Shown in pieces: positions 2 to 5,880 of a stretch of DNA of 5,880 nt. The translations under genes were made by a program, and so were the position numbers. Numbering within the stretch: position 1 is the stretch's first letter; the number at the start of each line of letters is the position of its first letter. Below the pieces are notes generated by a model. The model saw nothing but the letters and a program-made list of their open reading frames with translations, was not told where the DNA came from and did not search any database. The stretch spans positions 1 to 5,880 of the forward strand of contig VBBQ01000005.1 of the NCBI GenBank assembly GCA_005888755.1. The letters run 5' to 3'. The DNA is from Candidatus Bathyarchaeota archaeon (GTDB lineage Archaea > Thermoproteota > Bathyarchaeia > 40CM-2-53-6).

Positions 2-3000
2 GATTCGCTGAATCCCAATACGCTCAAGATGGAAGACCGAAACGTCTCACACGTCTGGAAGCTACACACCGACAAGCTGGTCAAGGTTACCCTCAGGAAC
101 GGCTACTCTGTGGAAACGACACCAGAACATCCATTCTATACAGTAGCAGAAAACGGAACAGTCAGACAGAAGAGGGCCGACAGGATTACAAGGAATGACT
201 TCGTTCTCGTTCCGAACACCCTGCGATCGCTGCCGAGTAAGATAGAACAGATAAAGTCCGAGATCTTGGAGGGTCTGAGTTCTCGCAAATACTACATCGC
301 CTATCTAGAGAAAGAGTTCTCGGGCGAGATTGCGCGACTGGTTAAAGATAAGGGTGTGAAACAAATTCATTCAGGCCTCAGAACGGACTCTTCGTTCAAG
401 GCGTTCAAAGCCGGACTCAGTCTCGGTAGAATAAGACTAGACGACCTGGCAAGAATCGCGGATTTGCTTGGGATACGGAGAGACCAGGTTTATGATCACA
501 TCCATAGAATCGCCTACAGGCAAAGCCACGCGAAGCCTGGCAGGCTTTCAAACCTAGTCAAATTGCCACGAACCTCGAAGCAATTTGAGAAACTTGCATA
601 CCTTCTGGGTATCCTCTGGGGCGATGGTTCTGTCCGAGCGAGCTTCACCAACAGTTACAGGCCGCTTCTACACACAGCATCCCAAATCTTTCGAAGTGTT
701 TTCGGGGTTAGCTCAATCCTCGTTAAGGACAAGAGGAGAAACACGTACCGGCTCGACCATCACGGTGGTTTCAGCCTCATCAAATTCCTTGAGGACACGT
801 ACGAGTATCCTGCAACGCACAAGGCTCACAACATTGTCTTTCCCAAGCTTATCCTGAAGATGGGGAACGAACACGTCGCGGCATTCCTAAGAGGGGAATT
901 TGACACAGACGGAGGGGTCGAGAGGACTAGCGCGGTCATATCTCTGACGACGGCCAGTCGAAAGTTCGCGCGGCAGGTCTCGATCGCTTTGCTTAGATTC
1001 TCGATCATTCCAACGATCCGTCAGAGAGGAAATTACTTCACAATCACAGTATCCGGGCGCGACACTCGGAGATTTGAGACAAGAATCGGATTCAGCATTC
1101 CAAGAAAGCGTAGGGCGCTTCGTAATCTCACTCGCAAAGCGGTAAGCAACAGAAAGACAGGAATTGTGCCAGTCGGTGGGCAGACTCTCCTGGAGGTTAG
1201 GAACCAGCTGGGCATTCCCTCAAATTACTTGGAGTTGAAGGTGCCTTTCTACCGAAGCTATGAGTCAGGAAGGCAAAACCTCACAAGGCCGATTTTCAGA
1301 AAAATTCTTGATGCTTTCGAAGGGTTCTTGGTTTCCAAACCTTCGGGGGTTGCCGCTGTTACACTGATGCACGAGTGGCACAAGCTCCTCGAAGGAGAAA
1401 TTCGACCAGTCCGGGTGAGGGACATAGCCACACGTACTGGCTCGTTCGACGTCTACGATCTGACTGTTCCAGAAAATCACACATTTGTTGCGAATGGTAT
1501 GGTTGTCCACAACACGACGATGACGGACAGTCTCCTCTCGGGAGCTGGACTCCTCTCGCCGTCTCTGGCGGGTACGGCTCTGGCGATGGATTTCATGGAG
1601 GAGGAACAGAAACGTCAGATGACCATCAAGGCTGCGAACGTCAGCCTGTACTACGAGCACAACGACTTGCCTTTCGTCATAAACCTGATCGATACCCCTG
1701 GCCACGTAGATTTCTCGGGTAAAGTCACAAGATCGCTGCGGGCCATCGATGGCGCTGTGGTCGTTGTCGACTCGGTCGAAGAAGTGATGGTCCAGACTGA
1801 GACGGTGACGCGGCAAGCTCTGGAAGAACGAGTCCGGCCTGTCCTTTACATTAACAAGATTGACCGGTTGATCAAGGAGCTGAAACTCAACCCGGAGCAG
1901 ATACAGGAAAGAGTTGCGAGGATAATCAAGGACTTCAATGCCCTTCTTGACCTCTACGCTGAGCCTGAGTTCCGCGAGAAGTGGAAGGTAAGCTTTGCCA
2001 CCAATACCGTGGCGATGGGCTCGGCCAAGGACAGATGGGGCTTCAATGCCGTAGTGGCTAAGAAGAAAGGGGTCAAGTTCTCCGATGTCGTCGACGCGTA
2101 CCTAAACGGGAAAGTGGAGGAGCTCAAGAACAGAGCGCCGATCCACGAGGCCATCTTGGGGATGGCGGTTGAAGTCATGCCGCCGCCGCATAAGGCTCAG
2201 GTCTACCGGATTCCGAAGATCTGGCATGGAGACCCTGATAGCGAGTATGGCCAAGCGATGATCAAATGCGACGACAAGGGCCCCGTTCTGATGTCTGTCA
2301 CTAACATCGTTGTGGACCCCCAAGCCGGCGTTGTTGCTACTGGTCGACTTTTCTCGGGCACAGTTACCGACGGCGAGTCAGTCTATCTGATCAACTCCCG
2401 CACTCAAGGACGGGTCCAGCAAGTGGCCATCTACATGGGACCACAACGCGAGATCGTCGGACACCTCAGTGCAGGTAACATTCCAGCCCTTCTTGGGCTA
2501 GAAAATGTGAAGGCAGGGGAAACTCTTGCCTCGGTGAAACAGTTTGTCCCATTCGAAGCCGTACACTATGTCACCGAGCCAGTTGTGACGATAGCTGTGG
2601 AGCCGAAGTTCAACAGAGATCTTCCCAAGCTGGTTGAGATCTTGAGAAAGCTCTCACTTGAAGACCCCAACCTGGTCACCAGCATCAATGAGGAGACTGG
2701 CGAGTATCTGATTTCAGGAATGGGGACGCTGCACCTTGAGATTGCAAACACTCTCATCACGAAGACGGGAATGGAGATTGTAACTTCCAAGCCCATCGTG
2801 ATTTACCGTGAGGCCGTTAGGAGGAATGCAGGTCCCGTTGAGGGGAAGTCGCCCAACAAGCACAACAAGATCTACATCGAAGTCGAACCGCTTGAAGACG
2901 CTGTCTTGGACCTGATCAAGCAGGGAAAGATTAGCGAGTACGGCGACAAAGCGGAGATGGCGAAGACTCTCCGAGCAGTAGGATGGGCTCCGGAGGAGGC

Positions 3001-3604
3001 GAAGGGAGTTTGGAGTATTGACGAGCCCTTCAACATGATTCTCGATGTGACCAAGGGAGCCCAATACATGCAAGAGGTGAGGGATATGGTATTGGCTGGA
3101 TACCGGTGGGGAATCAAGGAGGGTCCCATTGCCTACGAGCAAATCCGGGGTTTGAAAGTAAAGATCACCGACGTCAGCCTTCACGAAGACCCTGTTCACA
3201 GGGGTCCGGCGCAGATAATGCCCATGACGCGGAGGGCCATGTTCGTGGCTTTCCTAGAAGCTGCACCGACATTGCTAGAGCCGGTTCAGAAGATTACTAC
3301 ACGTGTTCCAAACGAGTTGTTGGGCGCCGTAACGAGTGTGATCACACAAAAGCGCGGAAAGATTGTATCAGTCGACCAGAAGGGACACTTGGTCTCAGTG
3401 GTTGGAGAGATGCCTACCGCCGAAAGCTTCGATTTGTCAGAAGTAATGAGGAGCCAGACTCAGGGGCGTGCGTTCTGGGGATTGGAATTCGCTCGCTGGT
3501 CACCTGTCCCAACTTCTCTGCTGCAGACCGTCGTCGAGGGAATTCGGAAACGAAAGGGACTTTCACTGGAGCCTCCGAAAGCCTCCGATTTCATGGAAGC
3601 CTGA
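2..3604 (+). CDS. fusA: Archaeal translation elongation factor 2 (EF-2) interrupted by an intein; 5' end outside window
   Basis: EF-2 is the cytosolic GTPase that drives ribosomal translocation. The frame is open from the left edge with no stop before the ATG at 29, so that ATG is internal. Residues below count from it. Residues 1-495 are intein; 496-1191 are EF-2. GTPase motifs visible are the Thr pair that finishes G1 (496-497), RQMTI with Thr532 (G2), DTPGH 555-559 (G3), NKID 609-612 (G4) and SAK 665-667 (G5). Domain II lies near 750-845, III near 850-920, IV near 920-1080 and V near 1085-1165. The diphthamide-site motif HRGPAQI starts at His1057. The 696-residue C-extein plus about 30 missing N-terminal residues matches the usual ~730 of archaeal EF-2. 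The RQMTI form suggests a TACK archaeon (from memory of Sulfolobus-type EF-2). The stop is TGA at 3602-3604. The promoter is outside the window. Confidence 0.96.
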   Translation, partial: DSLNPNTLKMEDRNVSHVWKLHTDKLVKVTLRNGYSVETTPEHPFYTVAENGTVRQKRADRITRNDFVLVPNTLRSLPSKIEQIKSEILEGLSSRKYYIAYLEKEFSGEIARLVKDKGVKQIHSGLRTDSSFKAFKAGLSLGRIRLDDLARIADLLGIRRDQVYDHIHRIAYRQSHAKPGRLSNLVKLPRTSKQFEKLAYLLGILWGDGSVRASFTNSYRPLLHTASQIFRSVFGVSSILVKDKRRNTYRLDHHGGFSLIKFLEDTYEYPATHKAHNIVFPKLILKMGNEHVAAFLRGEFDTDGGVERTSAVISLTTASRKFARQVSIALLRFSIIPTIRQRGNYFTITVSGRDTRRFETRIGFSIPRKRRALRNLTRKAVSNRKTGIVPVGGQTLLEVRNQLGIPSNYLELKVPFYRSYESGRQNLTRPIFRKILDAFEGFLVSKPSGVAAVTLMHEWHKLLEGEIRPVRVRDIATRTGSFDVYDLTVPENHTFVANGMVVHNTTMTDSLLSGAGLLSPSLAGTALAMDFMEEEQKRQMTIKAANVSLYYEHNDLPFVINLIDTPGHVDFSGKVTRSLRAIDGAVVVVDSVEEVMVQTETVTRQALEERVRPVLYINKIDRLIKELKLNPEQIQERVARIIKDFNALLDLYAEPEFREKWKVSFATNTVAMGSAKDRWGFNAVVAKKKGVKFSDVVDAYLNGKVEELKNRAPIHEAILGMAVEVMPPPHKAQVYRIPKIWHGDPDSEYGQAMIKCDDKGPVLMSVTNIVVDPQAGVVATGRLFSGTVTDGESVYLINSRTQGRVQQVAIYMGPQREIVGHLSAGNIPALLGLENVKAGETLASVKQFVPFEAVHYVTEPVVTIAVEPKFNRDLPKLVEILRKLSLEDPNLVTSINEETGEYLISGMGTLHLEIANTLITKTGMEIVTSKPIVIYREAVRRNAGPVEGKSPNKHNKIYIEVEPLEDAVLDLIKQGKISEYGDKAEMAKTLRAVGWAPEEAKGVWSIDEPFNMILDVTKGAQYMQEVRDMVLAGYRWGIKEGPIAYEQIRGLKVKITDVSLHEDPVHRGPAQIMPMTRRAMFVAFLEAAPTLLEPVQKITTRVPNELLGAVTSVITQKRGKIVSVDQKGHLVSVVGEMPTAESFDLSEVMRSQTQGRAFWGLEFARWSPVPTSLLQTVVEGIRKRKGLSLEPPKASDFMEA
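590..1108 (+). other. LAGLIDADG homing endonuclease domain of the intein
   Basis: This is a two-repeat monomeric LAGLIDADG endonuclease within the intein. The first motif is LAYLLGILWGDG, with the catalytic-position acid Asp199. The second is AFLRGEFDTDGG, with Asp294 at the matching position (numbers from the ATG at 29). About 95 residues separate them, typical for this class. The block-H-like stretch LLRFSIIPTI follows near 321-330. Both catalytic acids are present and the frame is intact, so by family knowledge it should cut an intein-free EF-2 allele at the P-loop codons. Activity is inferred, not shown. Confidence 0.9.
1169..1324 (+). other. Possible helix-turn-helix-like DNA-recognition segment in the intein
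   Basis: Between the endonuclease and the splicing blocks, residues 381-432 read like a short helical DNA-binding module. LLEVRNQLGIPSNYLE is followed by YESGRQNLTR and PIFRKILDAF, with the spacing of an XRE-type helix-turn-helix (a 'YE.G' turn and a closing helix). Similar segments occur in other archaeal inteins, by recollection. A second helical stretch with Leu-Gly-Ile turns (LARIADLLGIRRDQVYDHI) lies at 140-158, before the first LAGLIDADG motif. The likely role would be to help the endonuclease grip its long target. The call rests on pattern reading only. Confidence 0.35.
1499..1519 (+). other. Intein C-terminal splice junction in the P-loop codons
   Basis: Codons read Met-Val-Val-His-Asn, then Thr-Thr. 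The penultimate His and terminal Asn (1508-1513) are the standard residues for Asn cyclisation, and Thr at 1514-1516 is the +1 nucleophile. Thr-Thr-Met-Thr-Asp continues the EF-2 P-loop (GHxDHGK before the break), so the cut falls between the phosphate-contacting Lys and Thr. The N-terminal junction is outside the window. Confidence 0.92.
3197..3199 (+). other. Diphthamide-site histidine codon of EF-2
   Basis: The His of the HRGPAQI motif in domain IV aligns with the diphthamide His of eukaryotic and archaeal EF-2 (yeast motif HRGGGQI). The surrounding residues (LHEDPVHRGPAQI) are intact, so the protein should be a substrate for the archaeal diphthamide enzymes. The modification itself is inferred. 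Confidence 0.85.
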
Positions 3605-5562: not shown

Positions 5563-5600
5563 GAGTGGTCCTCAGGGTCCTAACAGCGGCCGTGGTCCAG

Positions 5601-5635
5601 AGTCAGCGCCACCACCTCCAAGGGTTGACGGACAT
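5601..5635 (+). other. tRNA intron 1: D-loop, 35 nt, bulge-helix-bulge
   Basis: The predicted splice motif has a central helix GTCC (5595-5598) with GGAC (5630-5633). The 5' bulge is AGA (5599-5601), and the inner helix is GTCA (5602-5605) with TGAC (5626-5629). The 3' bulge is ATC (5634-5636). Cutting after the second base of each bulge removes exactly 5601-5635 and joins AG to CCTGG, which restores a normal 11-base D loop. The insertion falls between positions 15 and 16. The outer helix is almost absent (one pair, 5594 with 5637), so this is a relaxed motif. The archaeal splicing endonuclease would remove it. Confidence 0.85.
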
Positions 5636-5660
5636 CCTGGTCTATGACACCGGCTTCCCA

Positions 5661-5675
5661 TCACGGCACGGAAAG
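5661..5675 (+). other. tRNA intron 2: anticodon loop 37/38, 15 nt, bulge-helix-bulge
   Basis: The central helix is TTCC (5655-5658) with GGAA (5670-5673). The 5' bulge is CAT (5659-5661) and the 3' bulge is AGA (5674-5676), with the anticodon stem as outer helix. Cuts after the second base of each bulge remove 5661-5675 and leave loop TTCCCAA. There is no inner helix; the remaining eight bases only close a loop. This is the canonical site for archaeal tRNA introns, and the intron is near the short end of their range. Confidence 0.88.
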
Positions 5676-5738
5676 AGCCGGGAACCCGGGTTCGAATCCC
5701 GGCGGCCGCACCATATGCGTTTGGCGAAATGGGGGTAT

Positions 5739-5880
5739 TCAAGTGGTGCCAGACTGTAGACGCTGCTTGAGGTAACCGGTTAGCTCCGAGAGGAGGATCC
5801 TCGCTTCTCTCTGGTCAATGGTCTCAGGCGTCGCCGTGACTCTATGGGGTTCTGTTAGCGCCTCGCCGGTGAGGTACTTG
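5739..5880 (-). CDS. C-terminal fragment of an unrecognised protein, cut by the window edge
   Basis: On the minus strand a frame is open from the right edge (first full codon 5879-5877) to TGA at 5741-5739, giving 46 residues. It starts KYLTGEALTEPHRVTATP and continues with an amphipathic stretch (REARILLSELTGYLKQRL) that looks like a terminal helix. The composition is protein-like and the other two minus frames are less convincing (one has an early TAG). It converges on the tRNA, with 25 bp between the CCA and its stop. I do not recognise the family, and the sequence is too short to assign a function. Confidence 0.5.
   Translation of the reverse strand, partial: KYLTGEALTEPHRVTATPETIDQREARILLSELTGYLKQRLQSGTT

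What the first reader, a model, noticed from the sequence alone, without database searches (positions are those of the whole stretch)
5586..5713. tRNA-Gly(CCC) with two introns, one in the D-loop
The gene carries a 35-nt D-loop intron (between positions 15 and 16) and a 15-nt intron at 37/38. Each has a 4-bp central helix flanked by 3-nt bulges, and the predicted cuts restore a regular 75-nt cloverleaf exactly. D-loop introns are far rarer than those at 37/38, and simple tRNA scanners may miss or mis-bound this gene. Multiple non-canonical introns are known mainly from TACK archaea, where a heteromeric splicing endonuclease with broad specificity is found.
Basis: partly seen in the sequence, partly recalled or inferred. 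Interest (0 to 1): 0.6.

Follow-up and report, generated by a model that had tools for sequence, protein, structure and literature searches.

The report
Two-intron glycine tRNA in soil archaeon
A glycine tRNA gene of an uncultured soil archaeon (Bathyarchaeia) is interrupted by two short introns, one of them in the unusual D-loop; comparison with relatives shows both are real, but this is a further case of a known archaeal tRNA-splicing system.

Summary
Window 5586-5713 (+) encodes tRNA-Gly(CCC) with encoded CCA, a 35-nt intron at 15/16 (5601-5635) and a 15-nt intron at 37/38 (5661-5675). Removing the first lets ARAGORN find the tRNA and place the second exactly; the default scan misses the gene. 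Intronless orthologues, and the two other tRNA-Gly genes of this genome, carry the exact predicted D-loop junction. The bulge-helix-bulge (BHB) is supported by covariation: across 16 distinct sequences all six intron-helix pairs show double changes. The D-loop intron recurs in the genus and in two families of the order. The genome has a catalytic EndA alpha subunit with the crenarchaeal-specific-loop lysine, a second non-catalytic EndA-like subunit, and RtcB. Both motifs are half-relaxed BHBs, the kind (alpha-beta)2 enzymes accept. The genome has many other non-canonical tRNA introns, so this gene is typical of an intron-rich lineage, like Thermoproteales. Verdict: real, correctly interpreted, a new member of a known kind; modest interest. 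Splicing itself is inferred; no RNA was available.

The parts
5586..5713 (+). tRNA-Gly(CCC) gene, two introns, CCA encoded
   Evidence: orthologues
5586..5600 (+). exon 1 (positions 1-15)
   Evidence: junction matches intronless orthologues L015, L017, L025
5601..5635 (+). intron 1, 35 nt, D-loop position 15/16
   Evidence: BHB fold, covariation, absent in orthologues and in sister tRNA-Gly genes
5595..5598 (+). GTCC, 5' strand of central BHB helix of intron 1 (also D-stem 10-13)
   Evidence: pairs with 5630-5633
5599..5601 (+). 5' bulge AG|A, cut predicted after 5600
5602..5629 (+). intron-side helix 5602-5607/5624-5629 with loop
   Evidence: six pairs, all with double changes among relatives
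5630..5633 (+). GGAC, 3' strand of central BHB helix of intron 1
5634..5636 (+). 3' bulge AT|C, cut predicted after 5635
5636..5660 (+). exon 2 (positions 16-37), anticodon CCC at 5657-5659
5661..5675 (+). intron 2, 15 nt, canonical position 37/38
   Evidence: placed by ARAGORN; 37/38 introns of similar length in orthologues
5655..5658 (+). TTCC, 5' strand of central BHB helix of intron 2; pairs with GGAA 5670-5673
   Evidence: 0 intron-side, 5 exon-side pairs
5676..5713 (+). exon 3 (positions 38-73 plus CCA)

Best explanation
This is a functional single-copy tRNA-Gly(CCC) gene whose transcript carries two protein-spliced archaeal introns. In the precursor, D-stem nucleotides 10-13 (GTCC) pair with the 3' end of intron 1, so the D-arm cannot form; this makes a BHB that a heteromeric EndA cuts after G15 and before C16. 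A second BHB in the anticodon arm is cut after A37 and before A38. RtcB joins the exons, the D-arm then folds, and the mature tRNA reads GGG. Anatomy, conservation and the presence of the enzymes are shown here; transcription, cutting, order of splicing and ligation are inferred.
For: Spliced sequence is a clean tRNA-Gly(CCC) and is the best product of all two-intron removals by BHB in the region: 122.8, against 109.8 for the next. The same D-loop sequence AG|CCTGGTCTA stands uninterrupted in orthologues (such as L015, L024, L025, L026) and in this genome's tRNA-Gly(TCC) and tRNA-Gly(GCC). Twelve same-genus genomes carry the complete gene with exons nearly invariant and D-loop introns of 32-44 nt. 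The BHB is kept by 24 double-change cells in 16 sequences, 93.8% of cells paired against 33-47% when the partner is slid. EndA alpha has Tyr, His, Lys and the KP loop lysine aligned with A. pernix K44; a second EndA-like subunit lacks Tyr and His; RtcB is present. It is the only CCC gene among the three tRNA-Gly loci found.
Against: No RNA data. The sliding control is biased because the structure was derived from these sequences, and the sequences are related. The mature D-stem keeps a C13-U22 mismatch. G008 lacks exon 1, by deletion or misassembly. Five same-genus genomes show no complete copy, though the bins are incomplete and G013 is cut by a contig end.
Confidence: 0.95

Rival explanations
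1. The insert in the D-loop stays in the mature tRNA as an extended D-loop; only the 37/38 intron is removed.
For: The acceptor, anticodon and T arms can be drawn with the insert present; no RNA data exclude it.
Against: The MFE fold of the insert region pairs D-stem 10-13 with the insert, and that pairing is conserved, with covariation in the adjoining intron helix. Orthologues and sister genes lack the insert with an exact junction. Length varies 25-44 nt among related genomes.
Confidence: 0.02
2. The gene is a decaying pseudogene with insertions; GGG is read by tRNA-Gly(UCC) through wobble.
For: G008 lacks exon 1; some same-genus bins have no complete copy.
Against: Exons are nearly invariant over 12 genomes of the genus while introns diverge; BHB pairing is kept by compensatory changes; CCA and all stems are intact apart from the C13-U22 mismatch.
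Confidence: 0.03
3. The tRNA-like match is a tmRNA, as the only sub-threshold Rfam hit in the window suggests.
For: cmscan reports RF00023 at 24.1 bits.
Against: The score is far below the gathering score of 47; only the acceptor and T arms align, with the tag and pseudoknot region skipped. The spliced product is a complete tRNA-Gly.
Confidence: 0.001

Closest known systems
Multi-intron tRNA genes of Thermoproteales (Sugahara et al. 2007, 2008; reviewed in PMC4090602, PMC4033280)
   Same: Several short BHB introns per tRNA, canonical and non-canonical positions, relaxed BHBs, heteromeric EndA
   Different: Here in soil Bathyarchaeia; position 15/16 is not among the positions named in the review text read (20/21, 22/23, 25/26, 29/30, 30/31, 45/46, 53/54, 56/57, 59/60, 3/4, 'etc.'). 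The review's figure and the primary tables were not available.
D-arm tRNA introns of Candidatus Caldiarchaeum subterraneum (PMC3293823)
   Different: Exact positions and isoacceptors differ or are not given in the text read
(alpha-beta)2 EndA of Aeropyrum pernix with the crenarchaeal-specific loop (PDB 3p1z, 3ajv; PMC6379350)
   Same: Closest solved relative of the alpha subunit (E 4e-42); catalytic residues and loop lysine K44 aligned
   Different: Activity and subunit assembly of the Bathyarchaeia proteins untested; the second subunit is closer to other EndA proteins than to a solved crenarchaeal beta chain

Membership tests
Archaeal BHB tRNA intron | 4-bp central helix flanked by two 3-nt bulges that hold the cut sites | tested here: met
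   for intron 1; for intron 2
Archaeal BHB tRNA intron, strict hBHBh' form | At least two pairs on both the exon-side and intron-side helices (definition in PMC7714728) | tested here: not met
   D-loop intron 6 intron-side, 1 exon-side; 37/38 intron 0 intron-side, 5 exon-side: both are relaxed forms
Archaeal BHB tRNA intron | Removal restores a normal tRNA | tested here: met
Archaeal BHB tRNA intron | Structure conserved by compensatory change | tested here: met
   (intron 1); intron 2 not tested separately
Archaeal BHB tRNA intron | Spliced RNA observed | not testable with these tools
   no RNA data
(alpha-beta)2 heteromeric EndA | Two distinct PF01974 subunits, one catalytic, one not | tested here: met
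(alpha-beta)2 heteromeric EndA | Crenarchaeal-specific loop with conserved Lys | tested here: met
   (K42 against K44 of A. pernix); same loop motif found in 25 of 30 loci scanned
(alpha-beta)2 heteromeric EndA | Heterotetramer that cuts relaxed BHBs | not testable with these tools
   needs biochemistry

The most novel reading that the evidence does not exclude
Position 15/16 is a recurrent entry site for introns in tRNA-Gly across Thermoproteota. It recurs here in two families of one Bathyarchaeia order, in both CCC and TCC isoacceptors of G018, and in tRNA-Gly(GCC) of G310 and tRNA-Gly(TCC) of G534 from outside the class. By holding D-stem 10-13 in the BHB next to G15, the usual archaeosine site, the intron may impose an order in which splicing precedes D-arm folding and G15 modification.
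Probability: 0.2. Interest if true: 0.45.

Novelty: new member of a known kind. Interest (0 to 1): 0.27.

Why it matters
It extends the well-described link between heteromeric EndA and scattered tRNA introns to soil Bathyarchaeia, and it shows that a default ARAGORN scan and a plain tRNA model miss or mis-bound such genes, so tRNA counts of such MAGs made that way will be too low.

Tried and rejected
A second tRNA near 5738-5880 was considered and rejected: the minus strand there is an open 3' coding end of 46 aa with no Pfam match. A split (trans-spliced) tRNA in G008, whose copy lacks exon 1, was considered: alignment with G003 shows a simple 78-bp deletion between CCAG repeats, or a misassembly, and no separate exact exon-1 copy was found in G008. 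Similarity of intron 1 to other introns of the genome was sought by short-word BLAST over the tRNA loci held: nothing beyond chance 9-12-nt words. A loose phylum-wide pattern gave many chance hits; of those inspected outside the class, only G310 and G534 were tRNA genes. A held copy of Sugahara 2007 was not available, so prior report of 15/16 could not be settled. My BHB enumerator mis-parses some genes (for example those called Ile(aat), Leu(aag), and Asp with a wrong acceptor), so its totals are not used as counts.

Full report
What was checked. The window is a whole 5880-bp contig (G000:C11) of a 2.0-Mb genome, 95% complete. The closest named records, matched through the neighbouring glycosyltransferase, are Candidatus Bathyarchaeota MAGs BA_21 and BA_3 (93% and 82% protein identity). 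The contig of BA_21 has the same length as that of G014, which carries the same tRNA gene close to that glycosyltransferase.

The gene. Removing 5601-5635 and 5661-5675 leaves a 78-nt tRNA-Gly(CCC) with encoded CCA. ARAGORN, given only the D-loop deletion, finds the gene and places the 15-nt intron at the predicted site unaided. With the D-loop insert present it finds nothing in the window by default, or in intron mode a wrong tRNA-Asp on the isolated gene. The Rfam tRNA model catches only an inner part, 5638-5702, at 19 bits, and cmscan offers a sub-threshold tmRNA.

Intron boundaries. Intronless orthologues in other families of the order read GTCCAG-CCTGGTC or GTCTAG-CCTGGTC without a gap. 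The tRNA-Gly(TCC) and tRNA-Gly(GCC) genes of the same genome have the same uninterrupted D-loop. The nucleotides on either side of the two cuts differ (A5601 against C5636, G5600 against T5635), so the boundary cannot be slid without changing the product. That puts the intron at 15/16.

Bulge-helix-bulge. For intron 1 the central helix is GTCC/GGAC, the bulges AG|A and AT|C, and six further pairs lie inside the intron; the minimum-energy fold is that structure. The exon-side helix has only one pair. For intron 2 the central helix is TTCC/GGAA with bulges CA|T and AG|A, the anticodon stem on the exon side and no intron-side helix. By the definition in PMC7714728 neither is a strict hBHBh'. Among 2,000,000 shuffles of the 35-nt insert the central helix with at least four intron pairs arises in 0.012%.

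Conservation. Twelve genomes of the genus have the full gene with a D-loop intron of 32-44 nt; two more have it truncated by a deletion or contig end. The family members G018 and G019 and three genomes of another family of the order also have it. Across 16 distinct BHB sequences 93.8% of cells pair, 24 cells show changes on both sides, and all six intron-helix pairs have double changes; sliding the partner drops pairing to 33-47%. The exon part of the central helix hardly changes because it is also the D-stem; its intron partner moves between A-U, G-U and G-C. Caveat: the slid control favours a structure derived from these sequences, and the sequences are related.

Enzymes. Every one of 41 relatives has at least one PF01974 protein, most have two. 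In this genome the first (189 aa) matches A. pernix EndA at E 4e-42, with the catalytic Tyr, His and Lys conserved, and with a KPVGIPKP loop whose lysine aligns with K44 of the crenarchaeal-specific loop, which is needed for broad specificity. The second (176 aa) belongs to the same family by Pfam but lacks the Tyr and His. RtcB, the archaeal tRNA ligase (from general knowledge), is present. This is the enzyme set expected for relaxed BHBs.

Setting. A crude search that removes up to three BHB introns and scores the product with ARAGORN found clean products with non-canonical introns for several further tRNAs of this genome: Gly(TCC), Gly(GCC), Asn, Lys(CTT), Ala(CGC), Val(GAC) and Val(TAC). 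Of 150 random windows only one gave any tRNA, at 99, against 110-123 for these. Some other parses are wrong and no total is claimed. The genome is thus intron-rich in the way described for Thermoproteales (PMC8450103; PMC4033280) and Caldiarchaeum (PMC3293823).

Outside the class. G534, a 1.5-Mb essentially complete genome, has a tRNA-Gly(TCC) with an 18-nt insert at 15/16, and G310 a tRNA-Gly(GCC) with apparent introns at 15/16, 37/38 and in the T-loop (read by eye). G534's central helix has one mismatch. The site has thus probably been used more than once or is old; I did not build a tree.

Verdict. A real and correctly read feature, a new member of a known kind. Whether 15/16 has been tabulated before could not be settled because the primary tables are not in the library; the review text read lists other positions and ends with 'etc.', and PMC6379350 states in general that relaxed BHBs occur in the D-loop.

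Noticed in passing
window 2-3604 (+): Archaeal EF-2 gene interrupted by a LAGLIDADG intein; the intein ends ..VVHN and the following extein TTMTDSLL is the P-loop region of the GTPase. The intein start and N-terminal extein are off the contig.
   Followed up: partly
G018:C8:32348-32410 (L114): tRNA-Gly(TCC) of a relative appears to have three introns: 15/16, about 29/30 and about 53/54.
   Followed up: partly
L020 around 1460-1627 (G019): tRNA-Gly of a relative seems to have a third intron at 3/4: AGTG CG|A GAG...CTC CACT AG|G restores the acceptor stem (read by eye).
   Followed up: partly
L140 (G534) and L143 (G310): tRNA-Gly genes from outside the class, same phylum, with inserts at 15/16.
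   Followed up: partly
L029 (G038): tRNA-Gly of another Bathyarchaeia family with an apparent intron near 10/11 and further inserts (read by eye).
   Followed up: no
L013 (G008:C34): tRNA-Gly(CCC) copy without exon 1: a 78-bp deletion between CCAG repeats relative to G003, or a misassembly.
   Followed up: yes
G000:C39 and G000:C13 tRNA-Gly genes (L111, L054): tRNA-Gly(GCC) and tRNA-Gly(TCC) share a 26-nt T-arm intron at about 53/54 with similar sequence, which hints at intron copying between isoacceptors.
   Followed up: no
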